From IMG/VR virus record IMGVR_UViG_3300044712_000493, positions 1 through 47,418 of that record: DNA of 47,418 bases; one strand, written 5' to 3'. This DNA is from a virus. Below, in pieces: positions 1,074-47,418 of this stretch. The position numbers and the translations under genes were made by a program. Positions within the stretch are counted from its first letter, which is position 1, and each line of letters opens with the position of its first letter. The notes under the pieces are model-generated. The model searched no databases. It was not told the DNA's origin and saw nothing but the letters and a program-made list of their open reading frames with translations.

Positions 1074-1780
1074 ACACCATTCTCCTTTCGTGAGGCGCGG
1101 GAGGCGAGATACGCCACCGTCTTGAATGTCCTGAGTATTGCCGCATCCATAGCGGCTTGGTGTCCCATGCCCATCCCACGGTAGTGCATCTCCAACCGTT
1201 CGTAATGCTTGCACATCGCACGGATGCTCACCATCCCCCGCATCTCCGCTTTCAGGCGGGTGTTCTCGGCTTCGGTCACGGCGCGATAGGCGACAGCCTT
1301 GCCCTTCCTCTGTTTGCACTCTTCCAGTTCGGCCTTGAGTTGGAATATGCGGTCGGTTGCCTTCCCTGCTGTCACGCAAGCCAGTTCGACCATCTCGCGC
1401 CGTGTTTTACAGTCCGCAAGGGCAGGGCGACGTGCAAGAACAGAATCTACCTCCTGTATCTCCGCTTCCAACGCCTTGCACCTGTCGATGTAGTCGTTGA
1501 GTTGTTCGCTCAGCACAGCGACCTCATCCCTCCTGCTGTTCTCGGAGTAGGTGAGGGAGAGTTTCATGTCTGCCAACTCTGCGCGGAGGCGGGTGAGTTC
1601 GGTTTCAAGTGCCATATAGTCACTTTCGTTCACCATCGTTCCTGCTAACTGAAAGTGCCACCCGTTCTCATGATTCTGTAGAGAAGTAGCTCTGTCTGAA
1701 TCTTTCTCGCAAATATCAGTATACCATGCCCCACCTCGATACATCTTCAGAATCACATATCGCTTTACATTCTCATTCAT
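1070..1780 (-). CDS. coiled-coil protein sharing its middle with the MazG-like gene at the right edge
   Basis: 236 residues. Residues about 55-185 are rich in heptad-like Leu/Glu/Lys/Arg and are probably coiled coil. The codons at 1264-1390 are base-for-base identical to the right edge of the window, where the same frame leads into a MazG-like domain. Here the C-terminal part (about 185-236: MVSIRAMCKHYERLEMHYRG, then SRASRKENGV) is different. A strong AAGGAGG sits 12 nt before the ATG. The stop overlaps the next start. Function unknown; it looks like a mosaic gene with an exchangeable C-terminus. Confidence 0.75.
   Translation of the reverse strand: MNENVKRYVILKMYRGGAWYTDICEKDSDRATSLQNHENGWHFQLAGTMVNESDYMALETELTRLRAELADMKLSLTYSENSRRDEVAVLSEQLNDYIDRCKALEAEIQEVDSVLARRPALADCKTRREMVELACVTAGKATDRIFQLKAELEECKQRKGKAVAYRAVTEAENTRLKAEMRGMVSIRAMCKHYERLEMHYRGMGMGHQAAMDAAILRTFKTVAYLASRASRKENGV
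1083..1099 (-). repeat. gene-junction repeat, copy 3
   Basis: Same core as copies 1 and 2. It encodes the ASRKENGV end of the coiled-coil gene and gives the AAAGGAG ribosome binding site, 7 nt before the Lar-like start. Confidence 0.85.
1264..1390. repeat. 127-bp exact repeat, internal copy
   Basis: Identical base for base to 47292-47418, the last 127 bases of the window. The preceding base differs (t at 1263, a at 47291), after which another 24 or so bases match again. It lies inside coding sequence, in the same frame in both copies. Confidence 0.95.
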
Positions 1781-7267: not shown

Positions 7268-7326
7268 TTGAATCAGGCATCGCATTATGTTAAAGAACGG
7301 TTTGGAACGTGAATTAAGGTACAACC

Positions 7327-17880: not shown

Positions 17881-20846
17881 ACTCTGGGAAGATGATATTC
17901 GAGAAGTTTGGTGGAATCTCCAAAGGTCCTGCCATCCCTCCGCATATAACCTTTGCGGAGCTTCTCAATCTTCGTTCCGATCGAGTCGCTGGTGGTCTCA
18001 CGAATCGTAGTGGAATATCTATCTTTCCCAACGATACCTTCGATCTCGGACCAAACTTCATCTGTGCTGGAGATGCCGTATTCCAGGGCACTCTTCATCG
18101 CAGAATCTTCGTGTTCTCCAATGGCATCTACTATGACGATGGAGACCACGTACTGAAGGATGCTACATCAAGAGTGCTTGACCTCACGATTGATACCGTA
18201 GTATCAACTACCAAGTTCATTCTCAGTGATTCGATTGACTCTCCAGTTGGACTCATTGTTGTACGAGATGTTGAGTCAACGCCGTCGGGCGAGTATCTTG
18301 TTGTTACTGCTTATAATGCCTTGACAAAGGAGATAACTGTAAATAGGGCTCCCAAGGCTGAATGGCAGGTAAACGACGAACTTGTGTTCTATAGGTCTGA
18401 TATTCTTGGTGACCAAACATTCTCGATACTCACTGACGCATATCCGTCACTTGATGTTATCGACAATCTTAATAACAGGATTGTGACTGGTATAAAGATT
18501 GTCAGTACCAATCAAACCCCCTGGGTTGGGTATATCTCGAATCGTAAGTACTTTGGTAACGAGTTTACATACAATGGCTTGTATGTGACTTCGCTTGCCG
18601 AGAAGTTCGACAGAGGTGCATTCAGATCTAATGTGCATCATATCAGAACTGCTGTTCTCGATACGAGCCCAACTACATCACTTCGGTACACATCTTCTCC
18701 ATCTGTATTACTACTCAACGAATCTTCTGCATGGGTAGACAATGATGGAGGTACTGTTGATATAGCCAAGTTGTCTGATGGAAATACTGCTACGTATTTC
18801 ACAGCAGGTACTCCAGCGGCTATTCACAACAAGTCGTTCATCGTACAGTTATCTAGACCTACATTTGCATACACACTCAAGGATAATGGTTATGCTGACT
18901 TCACCATTATAGGTGAACTGTATAACCGAGATCGAGTGTTTGATGGCACAGGCATCAACACAGTTGAGTTTGATGCTCAGGTCGGTTTCTACGATACTGT
19001 GGATGGAACCTTCACATCTGTGTACTCGGAACGTAAGTACTTCGAGTACTATCATGCTGCTGATGGAGACCTTACCTGGAAGGCTGGAACTGTTAACTTC
19101 TCTGTTCCACAGACTTACATCAAGACGCTTGGTGATGCAACCAAGGTTCTTGCTGTCAAGATTATAGGCTTCAATCCTGGCGCAGATCCTGAATACAGGA
19201 TGAGGATTAACAATATCTCTGCCGTATTTAACTATGAGAAATCAGTTATTGATACTATAGTTAATACGGTAGCAACAAGTGGTGCAACTGAAGATACTAT
19301 CTATGCTCTGAACATGAGCATCATACTCGATGGTGTCAACGAGACCCCACTCTTGTACACTGAGCCATACGGAACTGAGCATTCAAGTCTTCTCACATAT
19401 CAGGACGCTACCCTCATTAAGGGTGTGAATGGCAAGTATATTCGTCTTGAAGTATCTACTCCATATGCCACTCAGATCAATCGCAGGATAACTGCTATTC
19501 GTATCTGGGGTGGTAAACAAGTTGCTGGAGTATGGATATGGAGACTGTGTTCAACTGTTGACATCAATGCTGACTGGACAACAGATGCTACAGGTGCTCG
19601 TGACAAGAAGAAGATTATCCTCCATGTCGGTAACGAGATTAATACTGGAGCTCTGTATGAAGATAGGAACAACAGATTCTCTGGTGCAACACTGATTCAG
19701 ACTGTCTCCTCATTCGTCAGGGCTAACAACAGATCTTATGTTGTGTCTGATGAGAACAAGCAGAACATTTACTATTCTGCTATTGGAGTAAATGGATACG
19801 AGACATCAATCATAGATAATGCCGCCTATACGCTTGATAACGAGTGTTCTGGCGATATTATTAGGATGTCAGTTATCGGTCGCAAGCTCGTCGTATTCAA
19901 GCGTAACTCGTTTGGATCAGTTGATATTGATGCGCTTTCATCTGGTGGGCGTATCAATGTTATCTCGAGAAATCGCGGATTGTCGAGTGTTTATGGACTC
20001 GTCAATACTGGTGATTACCTTGCGTTTGCAACACAAACTGATCTTCGTGTTACTGACGGTTTCAAGACTGATTCTGTAAATGGCGAGTGGTCTGAAGAGT
20101 ATGCGAAATACTCACAGACACTCAAGGAAACCTGTCGAGCCTGGTTTGATACGTTTAGTGATTCTGTGTATTTCCAGTTCTACACACAGTCCGACAAGTC
20201 AACCTATAGGTTATGGGCACTGCATATTCCGACTGGAGCATGGCGTCAGGAAGACTTCAGAATTCCATCAGGTGTATATGCTCCCGATGATACTCGACCC
20301 GCTCATGCATCAATGACTGGAAGTTGTTACTTTGTATATGCATTCCAGAACTTATTGACGAGTCGCATGATTCTTGTTGAAGACTCTTTGAACTTCGATC
20401 CTGTTCGTTGTCGTATCTATGAGTTCCCAAGAGCAAACGGTCTCGAGACAAATAGGGCGATTGTGAGTGCTGTTGCTACTGAAATCAATACGTACTGTTA
20501 CTTCAAGAGCAATCCAGTTGAGAGCGATGAGTCTATCGGAACTGCCGTATTTATAGATGGTGGCTTTGTAAAGGCAACACTCAAGAACACCGGTATATCT
20601 GATGATTATCTTGGTGCGCCAGCGACTGACACTTTCAATCTGAATATCTACGATGGGTCTTCTCGTATTAAGAGGATACCGATAACCTTCGGTCGCCTTG
20701 AGTCAACTGTTCATGTTCGCAAGCCACTAAGTCGATGGGCTATCAGCAGTTCATTCTTTGTGTCAGCACTGTTCACAATCCAGCAGATTGGAACACTAAT
20801 TAAAACAACTGGTAAATCAGGTTCTGTCAAACAGGTACTATCATGA
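17877..20846 (+). CDS. tail nozzle-like protein (large)
   Basis: 989 residues; ATG overlaps the upstream stop. It has the long, strand-rich, repeat-like sequence of podovirus nozzle/tail tubular B proteins. Recurring blade-like segments include VVFKRNSFGSVDIDAL, VYGLVNTGDYLAFATQTDLR, CRAWFDTFSDSVYFQFYTQ and YRLWALHIPTGAWRQEDF, suggesting a beta-propeller core. It would cap the adaptor ring and form the exit for DNA. It is larger than typical T7 gp12 (about 800 residues), with a central insertion of beta domains at about 270-500. Confidence 0.78.
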   Translation: MNSGKMIFEKFGGISKGPAIPPHITFAELLNLRSDRVAGGLTNRSGISIFPNDTFDLGPNFICAGDAVFQGTLHRRIFVFSNGIYYDDGDHVLKDATSRVLDLTIDTVVSTTKFILSDSIDSPVGLIVVRDVESTPSGEYLVVTAYNALTKEITVNRAPKAEWQVNDELVFYRSDILGDQTFSILTDAYPSLDVIDNLNNRIVTGIKIVSTNQTPWVGYISNRKYFGNEFTYNGLYVTSLAEKFDRGAFRSNVHHIRTAVLDTSPTTSLRYTSSPSVLLLNESSAWVDNDGGTVDIAKLSDGNTATYFTAGTPAAIHNKSFIVQLSRPTFAYTLKDNGYADFTIIGELYNRDRVFDGTGINTVEFDAQVGFYDTVDGTFTSVYSERKYFEYYHAADGDLTWKAGTVNFSVPQTYIKTLGDATKVLAVKIIGFNPGADPEYRMRINNISAVFNYEKSVIDTIVNTVATSGATEDTIYALNMSIILDGVNETPLLYTEPYGTEHSSLLTYQDATLIKGVNGKYIRLEVSTPYATQINRRITAIRIWGGKQVAGVWIWRLCSTVDINADWTTDATGARDKKKIILHVGNEINTGALYEDRNNRFSGATLIQTVSSFVRANNRSYVVSDENKQNIYYSAIGVNGYETSIIDNAAYTLDNECSGDIIRMSVIGRKLVVFKRNSFGSVDIDALSSGGRINVISRNRGLSSVYGLVNTGDYLAFATQTDLRVTDGFKTDSVNGEWSEEYAKYSQTLKETCRAWFDTFSDSVYFQFYTQSDKSTYRLWALHIPTGAWRQEDFRIPSGVYAPDDTRPAHASMTGSCYFVYAFQNLLTSRMILVEDSLNFDPVRCRIYEFPRANGLETNRAIVSAVATEINTYCYFKSNPVESDESIGTAVFIDGGFVKATLKNTGISDDYLGAPATDTFNLNIYDGSSRIKRIPITFGRLESTVHVRKPLSRWAISSSFFVSALFTIQQIGTLIKTTGKSGSVKQVLS

Positions 20847-21205
20847 CTTATCGTCGTGTCCAAAGTGAGGACATTCCTAAAATCATAGAGCTCTGCAAGC
20901 GTCAGGGCATCGTCTATGAAACTACAAAGAAACCTCTTATCGGGTTCGTTGCAGTTGGAGATGAGGGTGAGTTGATCGGCTTTGTGTTTGCTCATCATTG
21001 TGCACTCATCGAGCCGTTTGTCTGCATCAATCCTACAGCATCTGTTAAGCTTCATGCTCGTATGGAAGGTGCATTGAGTGCTCTTGGGTATGAAACTCAA
21101 CTCATCCACATTCCGGCTGACAACGACAAGTTGAATGCTGAAGCAGTTCGGTCTGGGTTCTCTCGTGTAGATTCAATAGACTATACCATACTGAAGAAGG
21201 AGTGA
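20843..21205 (+). CDS. GNAT-family N-acetyltransferase-like protein
   Basis: 120 residues. Pattern fits a short GNAT fold: MTYRRVQSEDIPKIIELCKR (first strand and helix), GFVAVGDEGELIGFVFAHH (central strands), then VNPTA-like CINPTASVKLHARMEGAL and a C-terminal strand-helix-strand SGFSRVDSIDYTILKKE. GNAT enzymes transfer acetyl from acetyl-CoA. The canonical Q/RxxGxG/A loop is not clearly present, so catalysis is uncertain. Such genes recur between tail genes in podophages, suggesting a virion or host-modification role. Confidence 0.6.
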   Translation: MTYRRVQSEDIPKIIELCKRQGIVYETTKKPLIGFVAVGDEGELIGFVFAHHCALIEPFVCINPTASVKLHARMEGALSALGYETQLIHIPADNDKLNAEAVRSGFSRVDSIDYTILKKE

Positions 21206-27826: not shown

Positions 27827-27975
27827 CTGAACAGAATGAAGAAAAGAAAGAGCCAGTCGGTCCGACACTTCTTGAGATTGCTCGTAAGCGTCAGAACGAG
27901 ATAGACGGAAACGTCTACGATAATCCATTCAATGAAGACGAGACCGATCCAGACGACAATGTCTACGAAGCTTAA
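27817..27975 (+). CDS. small acidic hypothetical protein
   Basis: 52 residues (MEVTEQNEEKKEPVGPTLLE ...), with a perfect AAGGAGG seven bases before the ATG, overlapping the end of the giant gene by 10 nt. Rich in Asp/Glu, with two NVY-containing segments (GNVYDNPF and DDNVYEA). Probably disordered. Possibly a virion or assembly factor; function unknown. Confidence 0.7.
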   Translation: MEVTEQNEEKKEPVGPTLLEIARKRQNEIDGNVYDNPFNEDETDPDDNVYEA

Positions 27976-28471
27976 ATACTTCAATTCTGTTAAGGTTCCT
28001 GAAAATCTTCTTGAAGTATTTCAGGCACTGGAAGATATACTCCAACAGGAACATGGAGTAGATGGTGGACATCGTCTTGCAAGTACTACACAGGCTGGGA
28101 TGATTAGTGCTGATGACAAAAAGAAGCTTGATAGTTTGTCGGTCAACACTACATCTCAAACTATTACAGTTGTAAGTGGTACTGGTACTGGTGGTGTCAC
28201 AACGGGAGAAGGTGGTACTGGTGGAACTATCTTCAATCCACAGTTTAAGGTTGCCACCGGAGTAAACAACAGTACTGGAGTAACATTCACGTTTACTACT
28301 CCATATACTGGAGTTAATCTTTATACCTGTCACGTATCTTGCACCAAGGGTGATGGTGGAGGATTTCGTAATGTAGGCTACAAGAGAACTAAAACTCAAG
28401 ACTACGTTACTGTTATCCCTGTTGAGAATGATTGCACAGTGGAGATCATCTGTTATGCGATACCTTCTTAG
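27959..28471 (+). CDS. tail fibre-associated protein
   Basis: 170 residues from ATG 27959 (MSTKLKYFNSVKVPENLLEV); ATG 27932 is also in frame but lacks an SD. The segment STTQAGMISADDKKKLDSL is the well-known tail-fibre motif (TxxGLMSAxDKxKLD). A Gly/Thr-rich hinge (SGTGTGGVTTGEGGTGGT) precedes a beta C-terminal domain. Likely the first, attachment portion of the fibre apparatus. No signal peptide, in contrast to the next three genes. Confidence 0.7.
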   Translation: MSTKLKYFNSVKVPENLLEVFQALEDILQQEHGVDGGHRLASTTQAGMISADDKKKLDSLSVNTTSQTITVVSGTGTGGVTTGEGGTGGTIFNPQFKVATGVNNSTGVTFTFTTPYTGVNLYTCHVSCTKGDGGGFRNVGYKRTKTQDYVTVIPVENDCTVEIICYAIPS

Positions 28472-30056
28472 TCTTCTACTGTTTATTGTTCCAGAGATAG
28501 TGTTTGCTCAGCAATCACTCGATACACTCTGGGTGCGGGTAGTTCGTAAACTTGATGGGACGACTGTCAAGGTTCTCGATACACTCGAGTTCTCGGATGG
28601 GACTAAGATTTGGACTGCCACTGGAATAGGTGGAGGAATTAGTGCTGCAACTGCTGCCGGAATGATTGGTGATAGTGCATCAGCCAGAGCAAACGATTAT
28701 CTCGTACTTCAAGATTCTGTTGGTAACTTCAAACGTCCAGATACATCGTGGGCACTTGTCTATGTGAAGAGTCTTATTATCGCAAAGGTTGCTTATTCCG
28801 ACTCTAACAGTTGGCTTCCTACCTGGGCAGACATTAACGCCAAGAACTATCTTACAACGGAGACTGGCGACATTTCTAACGTAGGCGTAACTGCTCCTAT
28901 TACCGGTGGTGGATCGAGTGGTTCTGTGACTATTGGTTGGGATTCTACTGCACTCAATTACACCAAGGCACAGGTACAGGAGAAAGTCAACTATTCAGAT
29001 TCGTTAAGTTGGCTCATGACAAAGACTCGTCTTGACTTAGCTCTTGCTGGGTATCTGCCACTTGGAGGCGGTACGCTTACTGGTACACTTACATCAAGAG
29101 ATATTGTTCCTAGCGCTGGTCTTACGTACAGTCTCGGTACATTTGCCTCACCATTTATGTATGGATACTTCGGAACTACTCAAGCGATTAATGCTGATAC
29201 TATCGGTGGTAGTACTCAGACAGGTGCAAAGAGTACGTACTGGGAGAACACGCTTGGATATGCAAGATTTAGTTATCAGAGTAATGGAACAATTACTCTT
29301 TATAGATATAGTTATACCGGTGGAGCGAAGACACTATTCTCATTGACAACAAATGGTACTATAGTAAATCATGCTGGCACTAATAATTTTGATACTCTTA
29401 CTGTTGGTTACGACCACGCCTTAACTATTGGTGGATATAAGGCAATGACTTCACAGGATAGTGCAAATGCTCGCACATATTCTGACGTTCGATATCAGAG
29501 TAAAGCTCTTGGGACAGCGGCAGAAGGTAAGGTTTATAAGTATAGTGTAGTTGCTGGTGCTGGTTACTGGGGAACCGATAGTCTTGGAACAGGTGGTGGT
29601 GCGTCTGATGGTCAAAACGCAGATTCACTTAACGGTAAGATTCTTGATACACTTGGACGTGATCTTGGACCAACAAAGCGAACGGTAGTTACCTTTGTTA
29701 CTGATTCACTTAAGTATAAGCACATAGAACTTGCGGGATTTGATTCTACTGGTTTATCTATCGGAGACTCAACTGCATGTGTACTATCTGTTCAAGCAAA
29801 CAAAATAGTTATCACGCGACAGAAGAATCGTAGTGGATCTGCAGCCTTTACTACAACTGGAACAAGGGTTGCAGTTTATATTGCTGGAGCAAAAACAACA
29901 GATAGATATTTTTTGCAGACATATATTGGAGGAACAACCCCTCCATCTGCAGTTGATACGCGAATGGGAGCAATTGCTAAGACTGATAGTCTTGTAGTAT
30001 ATAGACCAGCCAGTGGCACAAGTGGGCAGACATTCTACTGGTGGAGAGTGCCATGA
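28455..30056 (+). CDS. tail fibre-like protein with Sec signal peptide
   Basis: 533 residues. The N-terminus MRYLLSLLLFIVPEIVFA then QQS is a textbook signal peptide: basic n-region, hydrophobic core, A-x-A-like site and Gln at +1. The body is fibre-like: LPLGGGTLTGTLTSRDIVPS and FASPFMYGYFGTT recur in phage tail fibres, and the rest is strand/turn-rich. Overlaps the previous gene by 17 nt. A Sec signal on a fibre-type protein is unusual. The start is inferred from the ATG with GGAG at a long distance; an earlier ATG (28422) lacks the clear signal n-region but is possible. Confidence 0.7.
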   Translation: MRYLLSLLLFIVPEIVFAQQSLDTLWVRVVRKLDGTTVKVLDTLEFSDGTKIWTATGIGGGISAATAAGMIGDSASARANDYLVLQDSVGNFKRPDTSWALVYVKSLIIAKVAYSDSNSWLPTWADINAKNYLTTETGDISNVGVTAPITGGGSSGSVTIGWDSTALNYTKAQVQEKVNYSDSLSWLMTKTRLDLALAGYLPLGGGTLTGTLTSRDIVPSAGLTYSLGTFASPFMYGYFGTTQAINADTIGGSTQTGAKSTYWENTLGYARFSYQSNGTITLYRYSYTGGAKTLFSLTTNGTIVNHAGTNNFDTLTVGYDHALTIGGYKAMTSQDSANARTYSDVRYQSKALGTAAEGKVYKYSVVAGAGYWGTDSLGTGGGASDGQNADSLNGKILDTLGRDLGPTKRTVVTFVTDSLKYKHIELAGFDSTGLSIGDSTACVLSVQANKIVITRQKNRSGSAAFTTTGTRVAVYIAGAKTTDRYFLQTYIGGTTPPSAVDTRMGAIAKTDSLVVYRPASGTSGQTFYWWRVP

Positions 30057-30700
30057 TACTTGCAATTTTATTGCAGATACTTGCACCATTTTATATTATT
30101 TCTCCACAATACTCTGATGATTTTTCTGGTAGTTCACTTGCTTCGAAATGGGTTGAGTATGATCCATCAAGTGCTGCCACAGTAACTGTTGGTAGTGGAG
30201 TATTGACGGTTGCAGTAACCGGTGGAACTGATCACGATTGGTATACAGGTATTGATAATGCCTGTCGTATTCGTCAGACATATACTGGTTCCACAAACTG
30301 GATCATTGAAGCAAAGTTTACTACGACAATGACTGCCGGTTATCAGTTTCATGGACTTACCGCTGGAACTGATAACAACAATGGCATCAGGTGGGATATA
30401 GTCTATGATGTTAATACTACTCAGTATATTGACATATCTCATATTGATGCTGGCACTTATACCGGAGAACTCTGGAGTGCTTCAAGTGTCACTACGCAAC
30501 CGTACTATCTGCGTCTCGAAAAGAATGGTACTACCTATACTTTTAAGTATGGTAGTGATGGTTCTTCATGGACTACGGCTGGGACTTTAGTCTGGACGGG
30601 AACTATAAATCAAATAGGTGTAATTGTGGGTAACGCAGGAGGTGGTTCTACGCCAGCATTTACTACAACGGTAGATTCATTCACATATACTGCACAATAA
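30053..30700 (+). CDS. lectin/concanavalin-like fibre or exported protein
   Basis: 215 residues starting MILAILLQILAPFYIISPQY, a hydrophobic export-type N-terminus. The mature part resembles a concanavalin-like/DUF1349-type beta sandwich: DDFSGSSLASKWVEYDPSS, WIIEAKFTTTMTAGYQF, YYLRLEKNGTTYTFKYGSDG, SWTTAGTLVWTGTINQIGV. Such domains bind glycans. SD GGAG six bases upstream; ATGA overlap with the preceding gene. Candidate receptor-binding or glycan-binding partner of the adjoining fibre proteins. Confidence 0.65.
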   Translation: MILAILLQILAPFYIISPQYSDDFSGSSLASKWVEYDPSSAATVTVGSGVLTVAVTGGTDHDWYTGIDNACRIRQTYTGSTNWIIEAKFTTTMTAGYQFHGLTAGTDNNNGIRWDIVYDVNTTQYIDISHIDAGTYTGELWSASSVTTQPYYLRLEKNGTTYTFKYGSDGSSWTTAGTLVWTGTINQIGVIVGNAGGGSTPAFTTTVDSFTYTAQ

Positions 30701-30713
30701 CTAAGGAGTCATA

Positions 30714-33700
30714 ATGAGAACATTTCTTTGTTTTGTACTGGCGGTCGTTATGACTGCTTGCTCACTTGGGCAGACTGTTACCCGAGCACGAAAAGGAGTC
30801 TTCCGTGATTCAGTCAGTACTCCAGTCATCAAGTCAACAATGCTGACGGTTAATCCGTCTGACACTATTGATTGGGGTAAGTCTGACAGATTCTATTGGA
30901 CTGTCGGAACTACGCCACTTGCACGATTCAAGAACGTAATGCCTGGACGTTCGATCGACGTCTTCGTTGCGAATCTTGAAACGTCTCCAGTAACAATAGA
31001 CTGGAATGGCGCATCTGTCAACAGTTCAGTTACGACTGTTGAGGGACGTTCCGTGTACCTGTACAAGTTGTGGACACTCAATAACAACTATATCATGGGG
31101 TATAGGTTCCCCGACAAGATGGCGTCGCTTGGACTGACTGGAAACGATGGTACTGGCACTACTCCCGATACAACTACAACGGTACCAGATACAACTGTTG
31201 TTGTTCCTCCGCCTCCTCCGCCTGACATTGTGGCTCCAGCCGCTATCACAGACCTTGCTATTGATACTACTGGTCCAGGTTCTGCGACACTGTCATTCAC
31301 AGTTCCTACGGCTAATCCAGGTTCGCCTACATCTTATGATATTCGATACTCAACGAGTTCGATTACCGAGTATGGAGACAGTGGTACTGCGCCAGCCACT
31401 GTGACGGTTCAACAGATAGTACATTCTGGTGCAATAGGTGCTACAACACATACACTCGATATTACCTGTGATGGAAGTTCAGGTGAGATGATCGTTGCTG
31501 TGGCTGGTGGATATATGTGGTCGCTCTGGGGCGTTACATCTGTAACAACTGCAGGTAATGACTTTACCCTTCGTTCGATAGGATATCGTGAAGCGTCCAA
31601 CTTTGGTGCATATATCTATACGTATGCATCTCCTGGCGCTGGAACTCATACGGTTACATTTAATTTTTCTGGAACTCCATATGTATCTTATGGATTGTAC
31701 AGGGTAACTGGAGTATCAGCATACAGAACTTCGGATGGACAGGGTGGCGTTGCCTGGCCCTTATCCTTTGCAACCATCTCGAACTCGGTATCGAATGAAC
31801 TCATCATAGACATGCATTCACTTGATCCTGATATTACCTCGGCACTCTGGGGCGATGGTCAGACTCAGGGGTGGATTGACTATGCTAATGTAACAGAGTA
31901 TACCGGTGCATCGAGCTATAGAAATGGTATCTCTGGCACCGTGAATATGACTCTTGATTATCTTGGGAATGGCGAGGACTACGCTGCTGCAGCTATTGCA
32001 TTATCCGCAGGAACGACCGTAAGTACGACTACCTCCTGGGATAATAGTATTCATACTACCGGTGTTCCACCTCCATTGGCGTCCGGAGTTCATCAGACCG
32101 TATATCTTACCGGTCTTCCGAGTGGTACACTTTACTTTGTGGTTCGTTCTATCGACTCAAGTGGCAACGTATCTGCGCTCTCCAATGTTGCAAGTAGCTC
32201 AATTCCGGTCGGTGGAGCACCATCTCCAATTGATACGGCTGGTTGGCATGGAGGATATGGATACGCATATGCAGACTCAATCACCAGTGGTGGCGCACAT
32301 CTGAAGTGGGTTGACAGTGCTGCTACAGCGGGTGGTAATGGACTTCAGGCATTCCCATTCAGAACAATCCAGGCTGGTATCAATGCTGCATCCTCTGGCG
32401 ATACTGTGATTGTTAAGCAGGGTACATACAATGAGTCACTTGCAATGAAATCTGGTATTACGATTGCAAGTTATGGACGACAGCACGTTGTGGTAACTGG
32501 TACCACATCAGGCGCTAAGTCATTTATGACTGGTTCAAACATCAGTAACGTCAGAATCCAGGGTATTGACTTTGTTGTCAATAGACTGTATACGCAGAGT
32601 ACATATCATATAGATATGAACGGCTGGACGAATACGGTCTTTGAGTATTGTAGTTTCCAGCAAAGACTTCAGCAGGTTGATAACGCCTCGTTCAGATATG
32701 TCGAGATGAGACTCATGTCTGCATGGAAGCCTGATCACATTACACTCGAGGGCAACTATTTCTATGGTTGGTCTCTGGCTGTTGTGCTCAATCCAAAGAC
32801 AGCAGACACAACATTCTTCTGGGCGAAGTACAATAACTTCGACCTCGCAGCCTGGTGTCATATTATCATTGGCTGGCCTGGTGAAGAGGATAGTCCGACA
32901 AATGAGACAATTCTCCCTGGATACGCTACACCTGGAATACTCATCGAGAATAATATCTTCGGGACATCGTGGGGTGAGGATGCCATTCAGTGGCAGCCAA
33001 ACTTCAAGAACGCTACCGAACGACTTATGGTAAGACACTACAAGAGTCTTGTTCGAAAGAATATCTTTAGAGACCAAGCAGAAAATGCTGTTGACCTTAA
33101 GGCGTCAGGTCACATCATGATTGAAGACAATTATTTCTATCGTATCTCAGGTCTCGATGATGGCTGGTATGTTGCCAACTCGTTGAGTGGTGGCGCATTT
33201 GAAGTTGGTGCTGGAGAAGGAACACAGAACGTTATCTCAAGATTCAATACGTTCTATTCCAACCCAAGCTCAAATGGTTCTAATCTGTGGAGAGGATGGA
33301 AGTACTTCCACAATACATCAGTATATGACGTACGAAACTATACGGCAACATCTGCTACCAACGCTGATATTACACACTGGCAGGTAGAGCGAGATAACGC
33401 TATTAAGAATAACGCTTTCGTCAATGGCTATATGTGCGTTCAGTCGTCAGCAACAACGAGTGCACTTGATATTGACGGAAACTTGTACTACAAGAATGGA
33501 GGATCTCCACTGTTCTCGCAATATGCTTCTGGTGCGTGGCAGACATTGACTGGTCTTACGGCATGGCAACAGCACTTCAGTGGAACTGGTGTTCTCGGAA
33601 AGGATGCAAACTCGTATGAGGTTGCTCCGCAGTTTGAATCAGTTCCTAACAATCCGACTGGTAATCATACGCTGTATGATTTCAAACCAGCATCTGGAAG

Positions 33701-33992
33701 CCCACTGATTAATCATGCTGTCGCTTTGACAACAACATCAGCAACTGCAAACTCGACATCATGTCTTGTTGGTGATGCTTACTATTTCCGAGATGCGTGG
33801 GGTATGAGTTCGATGGGTGTTGTAGGTGACAGCATCAAGATCGGTTCAACTAATGCTGTTGGCATTACAGCAATTAACTACTCGACCAATACACTTACAC
33901 TGTCCTCATCGCGTTCGTGGACTGCTGGAGATGGTATTTATCTGTGGAAGAACGGACAAGTAGTAGATGATATCGGCTCAATTCAGCGCTAA
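30714..33992 (+). CDS. exported tail-spike-like protein: split Fn3 plus right-handed beta-helix
   Basis: 1092 residues, AAGGAG before the ATG. Signal peptide 1-19 (MRTFLCFVLAVVMTACSLG then QTV; MTAC is also lipobox-like). An N-terminal beta domain (45-135) and Pro-rich linker (162-172) follow. The first half of an Fn3 domain is at about 174-225 (APAAITDLAID ... SYDIRYSTSSIT) and its second half at about 440-492 (TVYLTGLPSGTLYFVVRSID, SGNVSALSN). An inserted beta domain of about 210 residues lies between. From about 545 a right-handed beta-helix (FRTIQAGINAASSGDTVIVK, GTYNES) of DUF1565/pectate-lyase type suggests glycan cleavage or binding. Looks like a bacterial exported protein recruited to the phage. 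Confidence 0.72.
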   Translation: MRTFLCFVLAVVMTACSLGQTVTRARKGVFRDSVSTPVIKSTMLTVNPSDTIDWGKSDRFYWTVGTTPLARFKNVMPGRSIDVFVANLETSPVTIDWNGASVNSSVTTVEGRSVYLYKLWTLNNNYIMGYRFPDKMASLGLTGNDGTGTTPDTTTTVPDTTVVVPPPPPPDIVAPAAITDLAIDTTGPGSATLSFTVPTANPGSPTSYDIRYSTSSITEYGDSGTAPATVTVQQIVHSGAIGATTHTLDITCDGSSGEMIVAVAGGYMWSLWGVTSVTTAGNDFTLRSIGYREASNFGAYIYTYASPGAGTHTVTFNFSGTPYVSYGLYRVTGVSAYRTSDGQGGVAWPLSFATISNSVSNELIIDMHSLDPDITSALWGDGQTQGWIDYANVTEYTGASSYRNGISGTVNMTLDYLGNGEDYAAAAIALSAGTTVSTTTSWDNSIHTTGVPPPLASGVHQTVYLTGLPSGTLYFVVRSIDSSGNVSALSNVASSSIPVGGAPSPIDTAGWHGGYGYAYADSITSGGAHLKWVDSAATAGGNGLQAFPFRTIQAGINAASSGDTVIVKQGTYNESLAMKSGITIASYGRQHVVVTGTTSGAKSFMTGSNISNVRIQGIDFVVNRLYTQSTYHIDMNGWTNTVFEYCSFQQRLQQVDNASFRYVEMRLMSAWKPDHITLEGNYFYGWSLAVVLNPKTADTTFFWAKYNNFDLAAWCHIIIGWPGEEDSPTNETILPGYATPGILIENNIFGTSWGEDAIQWQPNFKNATERLMVRHYKSLVRKNIFRDQAENAVDLKASGHIMIEDNYFYRISGLDDGWYVANSLSGGAFEVGAGEGTQNVISRFNTFYSNPSSNGSNLWRGWKYFHNTSVYDVRNYTATSATNADITHWQVERDNAIKNNAFVNGYMCVQSSATTSALDIDGNLYYKNGGSPLFSQYASGAWQTLTGLTAWQQHFSGTGVLGKDANSYEVAPQFESVPNNPTGNHTLYDFKPASGSPLINHAVALTTTSATANSTSCLVGDAYYFRDAWGMSSMGVVGDSIKIGSTNAVGITAINYSTNTLTLSSSRSWTAGDGIYLWKNGQVVDDIGSIQR

Positions 33993-34017
33993 TAAATAAC
34001 CTTGAGAGGTAAGTTCT

Positions 34018-34395
34018 ATGTTCGTTCCCCTTGAGATTATCATACTTTTTGTTACGGCAATCCTGATTCCGTTAGTCGTTTATATCTGGCGAGACCAGAC
34101 TAAAAAGGTGAGTGCACTCAATAAAGCACTCGATAAACTGAAAGACGACATGGAACTTCAACTCAAAAACCATATCGAGAAAGCTGATCAGCGTCTCGAT
34201 AGCCAAGACGAAAGAATGAGTGACATGGAAAACAACTATAAGTCCGAATTCAAGGAAGTCAATCGCATAATGTTACTTGTTCGTGATGAGATCATCAGCA
34301 AGTTACATCGCATTGAAGTCGGATGTGCAGCTGTTAATCATCACGTCCAGTCACAAGAACCAATTACTGTACCCCCTGCCTTAAAGCAGGGATAA
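34018..34395 (+). CDS. membrane-anchored coiled-coil protein (lysis cassette)
   Basis: 125 residues. One N-terminal membrane helix (LEIIILFVTAILIPLVVYIW) followed by a long charged helix (KDDMELQLKNHIEKADQRLD). N-in/C-out topology with a coiled-coil periplasmic domain is spanin-like, but a simple membrane-bound coiled coil is equally possible. Located at the start of the lysis cassette. Confidence 0.6.
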   Translation: MFVPLEIIILFVTAILIPLVVYIWRDQTKKVSALNKALDKLKDDMELQLKNHIEKADQRLDSQDERMSDMENNYKSEFKEVNRIMLLVRDEIISKLHRIEVGCAAVNHHVQSQEPITVPPALKQG

Positions 34396-34422
34396 CTCAT
34401 CACCCAAAGAAAGGAGTACACT

Positions 34423-34629
34423 ATGCCGTGGTATGTCAAGGTACGCGAAGTTGCACTGAAGTTCAAGGATGGCATTACGACTGTGATGGGCTTCATTCCG
34501 CTCGTCTATGTTGTGATTGACACCTTCAACGATTGGGCAGCTGGCGGAAGCGCAGACATCGGCAAGCTGCTGATGGCTCTCTGCGTGGCGATTGCTACCT
34601 GGTTCATCGGGAAGCGACCCGCGCTATGA
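34423..34629 (+). CDS. holin-like protein
   Basis: 68 residues with AAGGAG before the ATG. Two hydrophobic segments (TTVMGFIPLVYVVIDTF and KLLMALCVAIATWFIG) joined by a short polar turn, basic C-terminus (GKRPAL). Size and topology are those of class II holins, which permeabilise the inner membrane to release or activate the endolysin. Neighbouring spanin-like and endolysin-like genes support this. Confidence 0.72.
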   Translation: MPWYVKVREVALKFKDGITTVMGFIPLVYVVIDTFNDWAAGGSADIGKLLMALCVAIATWFIGKRPAL

Positions 34630-35099
34630 AGTCATGGACAGTAATAGCACTCTGCTTGATGCTGACTGTCCTTGGGTTTGGACTGGGGTGGTGGTCAAAG
34701 CCCACCCCAGTTCCCCAGGTTCCAGCATCAGAGGTAACTCATGATACCACGGAAGTTCGTGATACCCTGTTTCTACCTTATATACCCAAGCCTACGACTG
34801 GTCTCGTCGCAGATGATACGACACCAGAAGATACAACACATGAATCTCCGTCACTTAAGACGGTTGTGCTCGATCCAAAAGTTGGTGATGCTCAAGTTTA
34901 TATTCTGTACAATCTTCCGAGTAAGATGTATCCACTTGGAATTGTGACTCGAGCATCTGTTACATACCCAAGAGTCAGTGACAGTATCTTTGTTAAGGTT
35001 CCATACGAAGTAGAAGTGTATCGTACTGATCTTGGTATGTTGTCAGTTGTGATTCTCATAACGGCTATTCTTTCATTTGCAATAGGAGTTCTTGTATGA
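34626..35099 (+). CDS. spanin-like membrane protein
   Basis: 157 residues starting MKSWTVIALCLMLTVLGFGL; ATG overlaps the holin-like stop (CTATGA). An N-terminal membrane anchor, a Pro/Thr-rich periplasmic stretch (KPTPVPQVPASEVTHDTTE), a beta region (VGDAQVYILYNLPS), and a C-terminal hydrophobic segment (MLSVVILITAILSFAIGVLV) suggest a protein tethered at both ends. The unrecognised arrangement with two membrane segments is unusual for a spanin. Confidence 0.55.
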   Translation: MKSWTVIALCLMLTVLGFGLGWWSKPTPVPQVPASEVTHDTTEVRDTLFLPYIPKPTTGLVADDTTPEDTTHESPSLKTVVLDPKVGDAQVYILYNLPSKMYPLGIVTRASVTYPRVSDSIFVKVPYEVEVYRTDLGMLSVVILITAILSFAIGVLV

Positions 35100-35515
35100 T
35101 GCTCTGCTTGTTGCGAAGCAAAGAGGCTGACGAAGTAGCAACGCCTGGCAAACTGTATGTTGACGGTCTCTTTGAATGCGATACTCTTGAAGATGCTATC
35201 CGTCCATATCCGAAGAAGATCAAGAAGAAGACGTGCATCTGGGGGAACAGGGCTTATCGTGTAAAGATTACGATGAGCCCCAAGTTCGGACGAATGATGC
35301 TCCTCGTAGAGAATGTGCCTTTATTTGACGGTATCCGCATCCATGCAGGGAATGATGCCGATGATACCGAAGGATGCATACTGGTTGGGGATTATGTCGA
35401 TCCTCACACAATATCGCACTCGGCCATAGCACTTGGTAAGTTGTATGCTAAGGTTGAGTATGCACTGAATAGGGGAGACGAGGTTGTTCTTGTTGTAGCT
35501 AATCCATTGCTGTAA
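35096..35515 (+). CDS. DUF5675 / YkuD-like endolysin candidate
   Basis: 139 residues, ATG overlapping the upstream stop, AGGAG at 7 nt. It carries the conserved core IRIHAGNDADDTEGCILVGD, with His83 and Cys94 in positions matching the HxGN...DTxGCILxG signature of DUF5675, a family related to L,D-transpeptidase (YkuD) folds. In the lysis cassette such a protein would act on peptidoglycan cross-links. No signal peptide, so it would need the holin to reach its substrate. No other lysozyme, amidase or peptidase is visible in this window. Confidence 0.8.
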   Translation: MMLCLLRSKEADEVATPGKLYVDGLFECDTLEDAIRPYPKKIKKKTCIWGNRAYRVKITMSPKFGRMMLLVENVPLFDGIRIHAGNDADDTEGCILVGDYVDPHTISHSAIALGKLYAKVEYALNRGDEVVLVVANPLL

Positions 35516-35533
35516 CTCCTCTGGGAAGAGGAG
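35516..35533 (+). promoter_or_regulatory. short intergenic hairpin after the endolysin-like gene
   Basis: CTCCTCT/AGAGGAG with a GGGA loop immediately after the stop codon. No T-run; probably an mRNA-stabilising hairpin. Confidence 0.4.
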
Positions 35534-35565
35534 CCATCACCCACAACCTAACAAGGAGAAGTACA

Positions 35566-35937
35566 ATGAAACATCTTCTGTATATCGCACTCGTTGCGCT
35601 CTTGTTTATGCCGCTCGTCGCCGAAGCACAGACGGGAGGTATCATCCGAGATCTGAACAACGAGACTGTTCTGCGTCAGAACTTCCACAATGCTCTGACT
35701 GTCGGGACTGTGATCACCTCTGCGTTCGATACCACCGCTACCTCGAAGTTCGTCAGTGTTCCTGGCGTCAATACTTCTACCTCGATCGTGAAGGCATTTC
35801 CCTACGGCTACGCTGCGGCTGACAGCGCCTCGGCACTCTACGCCTATGTCGCCGGCACCGACTCGGTGTACGTCACCAGGAATGGAACGCTGAAGGAGAG
35901 TCAGTTGAAGTTCGTGGTTCAGGTCATCAAGTTCTAA
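35566..35937 (+). CDS. small exported protein with signal peptide
   Basis: 123 residues. AAGGAG before the ATG. The N-terminus MKHLLYIALVALLFMPLVAEA, then QTGG, is a clear Sec signal peptide with Gln at +1. The mature domain (about 100 residues) is Thr/Ser/Ala-rich and beta-type (DTTATSKFVSVPGVNTST, ALYAYVAGTDSVYVTRNG). Higher GC than its neighbours suggests strong expression or recent transfer. Function unknown. Confidence 0.65.
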   Translation: MKHLLYIALVALLFMPLVAEAQTGGIIRDLNNETVLRQNFHNALTVGTVITSAFDTTATSKFVSVPGVNTSTSIVKAFPYGYAAADSASALYAYVAGTDSVYVTRNGTLKESQLKFVVQVIKF

Positions 35938-46085: not shown

Positions 46086-46328
46086 CTATTTTTGTACTGT
46101 GCTGACTCGCTGTTCGAAGATCACCTTCCCCTGATTATCCGCTATGTGTATCGTCTGTTCTTCTGGATTAAATCCAGGGATAATATTAACAATGAAGTTG
46201 AGATCAGCCCTTCCAACATTTCTGTTAAAGACTGATATGACTATTCCAGAGTCGGTAGCGATGTGTTTTTCTACAATACGTCCCTTCCGATGTCCAGAAT
46301 ATCTGATGATTGCAAACTGTCGTTTCAC
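46086..46328 (-). CDS. hypothetical protein, GTG start
   Basis: 80 residues from a GTG overlapping the upstream stop (GTGA), with AGGA eight bases upstream. Strand-rich and basic (FAIIRYSGHRKGRIVEKHIA, DSGIVISVFNRNVGRADL). Function unknown; last gene before promoter P7. Confidence 0.6.
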   Translation of the reverse strand: MKRQFAIIRYSGHRKGRIVEKHIATDSGIVISVFNRNVGRADLNFIVNIIPGFNPEEQTIHIADNQGKVIFEQRVSTVQK

Positions 46329-46525
46329 GTCTTGATTCCTGCCTTTCTGTGGCACCACTCCATCCACACATCAAAGGGATTCATGTTCTTAAATTCGTCT
46401 GAACCGGCAATCAGTTCTTGACAGATAGCTCCCCATGCTCCATCTTCAAATTCATTTACCCAGTCAACGTCAAGGAGATCATCAAGAAACTTAACCTGTG
46501 CATCGGTAAGAATTATCTTCTTCAC
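46325..46525 (-). CDS. paralogue of the gene at 46706-46903
   Basis: 66 residues from a GTG with AAGGAG five bases upstream. Sequence KKIILTDAQVKFLDDLLDVD, DGAWGAICQELIAGS and FDVWMEWCHRK aligns along its whole length with the product at 46706-46903. The upstream ATG at 46615 would overlap another gene and is rejected. Small globular helical protein, unknown function. Confidence 0.6.
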   Translation of the reverse strand: MKKIILTDAQVKFLDDLLDVDWVNEFEDGAWGAICQELIAGSDEFKNMNPFDVWMEWCHRKAGIKT

Positions 46526-46538
46526 TTTCTCTCCTTGA

Positions 46539-46709
46539 TTAGTTGATCCAGATTCTACGAGAACCAATCTGATATATTGAACCCTTGTAATAGATTGGTT
46601 TGTCAGGGAATCCATACGAGCGTGCTATACTGGCTAGAGCTTCCCTTAACTTTTGTTTCCTTAACCTCTTCCAGTTCTCTTCGCTTGAACGTTTATCTTC
46701 TTCGCTCAT
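46539..46709 (-). CDS. small basic protein
   Basis: 56 residues (MSEEDKRSSEENWKRLRKQK ...), ATG overlapping the previous stop in ATGA. N-terminal half very charged and helical, then YGFPDKPIYYKGSIYQIGSR, a compact beta end. It lies between the two paralogues. Unknown function. Confidence 0.6.
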   Translation of the reverse strand: MSEEDKRSSEENWKRLRKQKLREALASIARSYGFPDKPIYYKGSIYQIGSRRIWIN

Positions 46710-46903
46710 CTTGGAACCCCGTATTGTTCAAGCCAAGCGTTCCAGACTTCGAATGTGCTGAGTCCGGGAAACATACCAGATCCAGCAATGAGTTGTTGAC
46801 AAATCACTGCCCATACCCCATCTGGAGCTTTTGAATCAAAGGTTGGGTTTAGTAACTTGTCAAGATAAGCCATTTGTTCTTCAGTGAGAATAATCTTTTT
46901 CAT
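46706..46903 (-). CDS. small protein, paralogue of the gene at 46325-46525
   Basis: 65 residues starting MKKIILTEEQMAYLDKLLN; AAGGAGG seven bases before the ATG. Shares KKIILT(D/E)xQ...LDxLL, DGxWxxICQxLIAGS and FxVWxxW with its paralogue. Translationally coupled to the MazG-like gene. Function unknown. Confidence 0.65.
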   Translation of the reverse strand: MKKIILTEEQMAYLDKLLNPTFDSKAPDGVWAVICQQLIAGSGMFPGLSTFEVWNAWLEQYGVPR

Positions 46904-47418
46904 CACTTATCCTCCTTCTCTTTGGGGAGGTGGGAGATGGTCACGCTCAGCCCATATTTTGTCGATGTTGCGTTGAATTTATCTATCACCGCTTGCCCGA
47001 GATCAATCCCACTGTGAAGCGCAATCAGGTCGGCAACGATTACCACGTCCGCGAGTTCCCCTGCGAGTTCGGTAATCGTTGCCCTTGTGCCTCGAATACC
47101 CATGCGTTCACGTTCGAGTTTCTTGATGATGTTGCAGGCTTCGCCGACCTCTCCCGCTAACTCGTTCCCGTGGAACAGTACAGAAATCTTGCTCTCAGGG
47201 TCCCACTCCTTCTCGCGTAGGATATTTGCATCTCGGAGCAGCTCTAAACTGCCATTGCACTTCTTCCGCATCTCCGCTTTCAGGCGGGTGATCTCGGCTT
47301 CGGTCACGGCGCGATAGGCGACAGCCTTGCCCTTCCTCTGTTTGCACTCTTCCAGTTCGGCCTTGAGTTGGAATATGCGGTCGGTTGCCTTCCCTGCTGT
47401 CACGCAAGCCAGTTCGAC
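46903..47418 (-). CDS. MazG-like nucleotide pyrophosphohydrolase domain protein (5' end outside window)
   Basis: The frame is open to the right edge. The C-terminal about 110 residues form a MazG-like domain: ISVLFHGNELAGEVGEACNI, then ELAGELADVVIVADLIALHS and GIDLGQAVIDKFN. Acidic ELxxExxE and ExxD positions match MazG family metal sites. Such enzymes hydrolyse NTPs or ppGpp-like nucleotides. The N-terminal visible part (GKATDRIFQLKAELEECKQR) equals the coiled coil of the gene at 1070-1780. An apparent start inside this repeat (GTG at 47403) is not preferred; translation probably begins further upstream. Confidence 0.75.
   Translation of the reverse strand, partial: VELACVTAGKATDRIFQLKAELEECKQRKGKAVAYRAVTEAEITRLKAEMRKKCNGSLELLRDANILREKEWDPESKISVLFHGNELAGEVGEACNIIKKLERERMGIRGTRATITELAGELADVVIVADLIALHSGIDLGQAVIDKFNATSTKYGLSVTISHLPKEKEDK
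47292..47418. repeat. 127-bp exact repeat, right-edge copy
   Basis: Identical to 1264-1390 and ending exactly at the window edge. Contains the in-frame coiled-coil segment of the MazG-like gene. See the internal copy. Confidence 0.95.

What the first reader, a model, noticed from the sequence alone, without database searches (positions are those of the whole stretch)
28455..35937. Sec signal peptides on fibre/spike-type proteins of a phage
Four gene products in the fibre/lysis region (28455, 30053, 30714, 35566) begin with export-type N-termini. In three, Gln follows the predicted cut (VFA|QQ, SLG|QT, AEA|QT), the so-called Bacteroidetes Q-rule (Gln after signal peptidase I cleavage, later cyclised). 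Tail fibres normally assemble in the cytoplasm, so export would be a mismatch. Possible readings: the phage puts glycan-binding and glycan-cleaving proteins on the host surface (superinfection exclusion, altered adhesion, virion release) or the domains were captured whole from host exported genes. The signal peptides are seen; the function is inference.
Basis: partly seen in the sequence, partly recalled or inferred. Interest (0 to 1): 0.85.

Follow-up and report, generated by a model that had tools for sequence, protein, structure and literature searches.

The report
Exported spike-like proteins in a phage
Just downstream of its tail-fibre gene, this bacterial virus carries several genes whose proteins bear an export tag of the Bacteroidota type; a distant relative keeps such tags on largely unrelated proteins, so the virus probably sends spike-like proteins into the host's cell envelope late in infection, but what they do there is untested.

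Summary
The export tags are real in three of the four genes. 28455 (VFA|QQ) and 35566 (AEA|QTG) have clean Sec signal peptides with Gln at +1. 30714 has one too, but its cut is ambiguous: SLG|QT, ACS|LG, or a lipobox (MTAC). 30053 starts with a hydrophobic stretch without a good cut site. Starts are supported by Shine-Dalgarno sites or gene overlap. Outside this block and the lysis cassette, no late gene has a hydrophobic N-terminus.

The strongest evidence is a relative, G001 (terminase 59%, capsid 55% identical). Downstream of its fibre gene it has largely unrelated proteins with the same kind of tag, plus a homologue of 35566 whose tag has diverged yet remains a tag. Unrelated contigs L091 (pectate-lyase-type spike) and L056 (fibre repeats) also place a tag plus Gln on a spike-like protein. 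None of 94 fibre-motif genes in 120 control loci had one.

"Tail fibre" is inference: 28455 has no detectable family, both structure models failed, and the host is unknown. Most likely these are late exported envelope- or glycan-acting proteins, not fibres assembled in the cytoplasm. Spikes added to virions at lysis are a live, more novel alternative. Phage genes with Q-rule signal peptides are already published.

The parts
28455..30056 (+). 533-aa protein, signal peptide 28455-28508 (VFA|QQ), fibre-like low-complexity body of unknown family
   Evidence: signal peptide score 6.4; no family
30053..30700 (+). 215-aa protein, hydrophobic N-terminus 30053-30103 without a proper cut site, concanavalin-like domain (GH43_C2)
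   Evidence: PF17851, E=2e-8, above cut-off; ATGA overlap with 28455 gene
30714..33992 (+). 1092-aa protein, signal peptide 30714-30770 (SLG|QT) or lipobox MTAC, fn3-like segments, probable right-handed beta-helix from about residue 540
   Evidence: weak PF07602 (DUF1565) and beta-helix hits; fn3 read from the sequence
35566..35937 (+). 123-aa protein, signal peptide 35566-35628 (AEA|QTG), homologue in G001 (L005:6528-6956)
27932..28471 (+). untagged fibre gene (DKKKLD motif), candidate virion fibre or adaptor
   Evidence: similar to fibre-motif proteins of many phages; no signal peptide
34018..35099 (+). three membrane proteins of the lysis cassette (34018, 34423, 34626)
   Evidence: hydrophobic N-termini; roles inferred from position
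35096..35515 (+). DUF5675 protein, probable endolysin or peptidase, untagged
   Evidence: (PF18925, E=1e-26)

Best explanation
The phage makes a block of late proteins (28455, 30714, 35566, perhaps 30053) that are true Sec substrates. The host moves them across the inner membrane in the late phase and signal peptidase cuts them, in at least two cases exposing a Gln that a Q-rule host would cyclise. They are therefore not ordinary tail fibres assembled in the cytoplasm; the virion fibre or adaptor is more likely the untagged 27932. Their spike-like bodies (probable beta-helix, concanavalin-like and fn3-like domains) most likely bind or process envelope glycans, masking receptors from sister virions and debris or loosening capsule at release. 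Shown: the tags, their position, their conservation. Inferred: late expression, cleavage, location, function. Exported late proteins: about 0.8; this particular envelope role: about 0.35.
For: Good signal peptides with supported starts confined to this block. In relative G001 the genes after the fibre also carry signal peptides with Gln (L005:7319 LMA|QVD, 6528 SA|QTG), with mostly unrelated bodies; in the 35566/6528 pair the tag is 5/21 identical and the mature start 12/24, as expected if only the properties of the tag are selected. L091 and L056 repeat the plan in unrelated phages. 0 of 94 control fibre genes are tagged. Phage use of Q-rule export has precedent (PMC10367356).
Against: No SignalP run, no proteomics, host unknown. 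30053 and 30714 have weak or ambiguous cuts. Spike-like nature of 28455 rests on reading the sequence. No T9SS domain was found, so nothing shows the proteins pass the outer membrane before lysis, which receptor masking would need. No catalytic residues identified.
Confidence: 0.5

Rival explanations
1. They are true virion spikes that mature in the periplasm and join the particle only at or after lysis, docking on an untagged adaptor (27932) already on the tail.
For: Position directly after the fibre gene in the window, G001 and L091; pectate-lyase-like stretch in L091 as in tailspikes; P22-like portal here. From general knowledge, P22 tailspikes attach last and do so in vitro.
Against: No known tailed phage assembles spikes this way; no shared docking segment was seen among the tagged proteins; in the flavobacterial phages the tagged genes lie away from structural genes.
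Confidence: 0.13
2. Whole exported genes captured from the host; the tags are inherited and the proteins serve no export-dependent phage function.
For: Domain types common in bacterial exported proteins; GC3 of the block (0.27-0.40) and of 35566 (0.68) departs from the structural genes (0.48).
Against: Tags persist over deep divergence and on exchanged bodies; the untagged fibre 27932 has the same low GC3; no bacterial homologue found.
Confidence: 0.12
3. The hydrophobic N-termini are uncleaved anchors or lipoprotein signals of lysis-related or membrane proteins.
For: 30053 lacks a cut site and 30714 has a possible lipobox MTAC; the genes adjoin the lysis cassette.
Against: 28455, 35566, L005:7319 and L006:3744 have proper cleavage motifs followed by Gln, not Cys; the bodies are far larger than known spanins.
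Confidence: 0.12

Closest known systems
Q-rule signal-peptide genes of Porphyromonas gingivalis phages ('Nixviridae'), PMC10367356
   Same: Phage genes with Sec signal peptides exposing Gln, proposed to use the host's secretion route
   Different: Genes of unknown function, not described as spike-like or as a block beside the fibre gene; no sequence comparison made here
FCL-2-type exported VGI(G/A)TTTP proteins (phrog_13535) of Flavobacterium phages
   Same: Signal peptide, Gln at +1, fibre-type repeat
   Different: Small, lie among early or DNA-metabolism genes in most loci seen, no sequence homology to the window proteins
Phage tailspikes with pectate-lyase-like beta-helices
   Same: Position after the fibre gene, probable beta-helix in 30714
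   Different: Ordinary tailspikes have no signal peptide (general knowledge; 0 of 94 fibre-motif controls)
WceF of Pantoea stewartii (PMC7949094)
   Same: Tailspike-like beta-helix protein with an export signal
   Different: Bacterial gene, Tat signal, known glycanase
Superinfection-exclusion lipoproteins (T5 Llp, Cor of N15/phi80; general knowledge)
   Same: Phage-encoded envelope proteins that could act at the receptor
   Different: Small envelope proteins without spike domains; no exclusion activity known here

Membership tests
Bacteroidota Q-rule signal peptidase I substrates | Sec signal peptide with n, h and c regions | tested here: met
   28455, 30714, 35566; 30053 weak
Bacteroidota Q-rule signal peptidase I substrates | Gln at +1 of the cut | tested here: met
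   28455 and 35566; ambiguous for 30714, absent for 30053
Bacteroidota Q-rule signal peptidase I substrates | Cleavage and cyclisation to pyroglutamate in a Q-rule host | not testable with these tools
   needs proteomics; host unknown
Phage tail fibre or tailspike | Match to a fibre or spike family | tested here: inconclusive
   28455 and 35566 none; 30714 weak beta-helix; 27932 matches fibre-motif proteins
Phage tail fibre or tailspike | Present in the virion | not testable with these tools
   no virion proteomics
Bacterial lipoprotein (SPII) | Lipobox with Cys at +1 | tested here: inconclusive
   MTAC in 30714 only; not in 28455 or 35566
T9SS cargo | C-terminal secretion domain (Por_Secre_tail type) | tested here: not met
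   no such hit in NCBIfam or Pfam

The most novel reading that the evidence does not exclude
A tailed phage that splits fibre assembly across the inner membrane: adaptor and virion are built in the cytoplasm, while spikes are exported, processed and folded in the periplasm and join the particle at lysis.
Probability: 0.13. Interest if true: 0.92.

Novelty: new variant of a known kind. Interest (0 to 1): 0.6.

Why it matters
Tail spikes decide host range and are thought to be assembled with the virion in the cytoplasm. A conserved block of exported spike-like proteins would mean either a receptor-masking or glycan-clearing secretome made by phages late in infection, or a new route of virion assembly. 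Both can be tested with reporter fusions and virion proteomics in a cultured phage-host pair.

Tried and rejected
Wrong-start artefact: rejected (Shine-Dalgarno sites, ATGA overlap, conservation). Chance hydrophobic starts: rejected. Tags as a general feature of fibre genes: rejected (0 of 94 fibre-motif genes). L005:7014 as a signal peptide: set aside, because its overlap-coupled start at 7322 makes it more likely a membrane or spanin-type protein. Structure prediction: both models unusable (35566 pLDDT 41, 30714 C-terminal half pLDDT 30), so no fold search was run. Searches for 28455 and 30714 in viral contigs, and for 28455, 30053 and 30714 in phages, found nothing; 30714 in plasmids gave one weak 82-residue hit. 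Two genome-collection scans found no host or prophage. Literature searches found no report of signal peptides on phage spikes; the library lacks most subscription journals.

Full report
WHAT THE WINDOW IS. The window is a 47,418-bp IMG/VR virus record. The late genes run on the plus strand from 8172 to 36361: terminase 9505 (phrog_38), P22-like portal 11281 (PF16510), SU10-type capsid 14368 (PF17236), tail and internal proteins to 27826, fibre 27932, the tagged block, the lysis cassette, 35566 and 36008. Replication-type genes lie on the minus strand. No annotated phage is close: the best terminase hits share about 22% identity, and only two viral contigs are related, G001 (47,150 bp; loci L004-L006, also L002, L007, L064) and the fragment L003.

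CHECK OF THE OBSERVATION. It finds the OmpA, MalE and Bla sites but mis-sites PhoA, so it is no substitute for SignalP. My first filter missed 28455 and 35566 because of an acidic residue near the cut, and was relaxed after seeing that; the background count uses the relaxed filter. 28455 scores 6.4 at VFA|QQ and 35566 scores 10.9 at AEA|QTG. 30714 scores 5.7 at ACS|LG and 5.6 at SLG|QT, and contains MTAC, a possible lipobox. 30053 scores 5.1 at IIS|PQ but lacks a basic n-region and an AxA motif and would have Pro at +1. Of 26 hand-listed late genes, only these four and the three membrane proteins of the lysis cassette (34018, 34423, 34626) have hydrophobic N-termini; none of the 17 upstream genes does. 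Internal protein segments of the window and G001 pass score 5 in 6 of 1835 trials. Starts are backed by Shine-Dalgarno sites and, for 30053, an ATGA overlap.

CONSERVATION. In G001 the genes after its fibre gene (L005:9148, about 50% identical to 27932 over an N-terminal stretch of about 60 residues) are L005:8863 (small, untagged), 8421 (MKRLVVLLVLAYPCFSQVHG, cut uncertain), 7319 (MKRILFALLLLCATPLMA|QVD, a VGIGTTTP-bearing fibre-like protein), 7014 (membrane/coiled-coil) and 6528 (MKRLMLFLTMVFTVYLGSA|QTG), all on the minus strand. 6528 is homologous to window 35566 across the cut: the tag is 5/21 identical, the first 24 mature residues 12/24. The other bodies are not recognisably homologous to 28455 or 30714. 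A further tagged protein with SH3-like segments lies elsewhere in G001 (L006:3744, TFS|QGF). So the plan 'signal peptide plus Gln on a protein downstream of the fibre gene' is kept while the proteins are exchanged. With the homologous pair counted once and L005:7014 included, 4 of 5 sites have Gln, p about 9e-6 at the local Gln frequency of 3.7%. That number is indicative only, since the sites were chosen by my own scoring.

BEYOND THE FAMILY. A degenerate search for [AS]-Q-V-G-I-[GA]-T-x-x-P in IMG/VR returned 48 contigs, of which at least six independent ones (L016, L018, L021/L059 = FCL-2 type, L031, L039, L044) carry a signal peptide directly before the Gln. In most of these the gene lies among early or DNA-metabolism genes rather than structural ones, and the L018 protein matches phrog_13535, a phage family of unknown function, along nearly its whole length including the tag. 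A separate set of 120 loci chosen only for a fibre motif held 94 fibre-motif genes, none tagged. It did bring in L091, where the gene after a short fibre gene starts MRYILSILILLCSVTAFG|QVPEQ, its start overlapping the upstream stop. In another frame of the contig it is followed by the DKKKLD motif and a pectate-lyase-like stretch (PF12708, E=7e-4, below cut-off). The gene is interrupted by frameshifts in that contig, so its unity is inferred. The contig has a portal (phrog_6547, E=1e-60) and a weaker capsid match. L056 carries an 837-aa tagged protein full of VGIGTTTP repeats between a weakly matched portal region and a holin.

HOST. The Q-rule points to Bacteroidota: Bacteroidetes average 71% Gln at +1, and Ignavibacterium album reaches 77% (PMC5837995). 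The window uses Shine-Dalgarno sites (25 of 48 genes against 9.1 expected) and so does G001, while FCL-2 does not (2 of 49). This argues against a flavobacterial host and leaves other lineages open. No host genome was found.

WHAT IT DOES. The tags are most simply read as working export signals. Against use as a virion-docking segment: in the one homologous pair the tag sequence diverges more than the mature start while its properties are kept. Against baggage from host capture: persistence over deep divergence. Where the proteins end up is open. No T9SS domain was found, so periplasm until lysis is as likely as the surface. Given the domains (concanavalin-like in 30053, fn3-like and probable beta-helix in 30714), binding or cutting of envelope glycans is the most probable activity, which could mask receptors or ease release. 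The alternative that exported spikes join virions at lysis deserves a test because the phage has a P22-like portal and, from general knowledge, P22 tailspikes attach last and do so in vitro.

PRIOR ART. Phage genes with Q-rule signal peptides were reported in P. gingivalis phages (five genes of unknown function, PMC10367356), and signal peptides were noted in rumen Bacteroides phages (PMC5723332). A tailspike-fold enzyme with an export signal is known in a bacterium (WceF, PMC7949094). I found no report of signal peptides on spike-like proteins beside the fibre gene of a tailed phage, within an open-access library.

LIMITS. One relative covers the region; host, virion content and function are untested; both structure models failed; the label 'spike-like' for 28455 rests on reading the sequence.

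Noticed in passing
window 1238-1390 and 47266-47418: A 153-bp direct repeat at 99% identity; the right contig end repeats an internal stretch near the left end, so the contig may have stopped at a repeat or be part of a circular or permuted genome.
   Followed up: partly
window 30714-33992, residues about 215-445: An fn3-like domain seems to be split by an insert of about 230 residues that looks like a separate domain.
   Followed up: no
window 46325-46615 and 46706-46906: Two neighbouring minus-strand genes encode similar small proteins (tandem paralogues).
   Followed up: no
window 20843-21205; L005:17443-17808: An acetyltransferase-like (GNAT-type, by eye) gene among the tail genes is conserved at 49% identity in G001, more than its neighbours.
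   Followed up: no
L031 10173-10679 and 11308-11796: Two neighbouring genes with signal peptide plus Gln in one viral contig.
   Followed up: no
window 27932-30700 and 35566-35937: GC3 of the fibre block (0.27-0.32) and of 35566 (0.68) departs in opposite directions from the structural genes (0.48), suggesting separate origins.
   Followed up: partly
window and L004-L006: Strong Shine-Dalgarno use in a phage whose exported proteins follow the Q-rule, unlike Flavobacterium phage FCL-2; a hint to an uncommon host lineage.
   Followed up: partly
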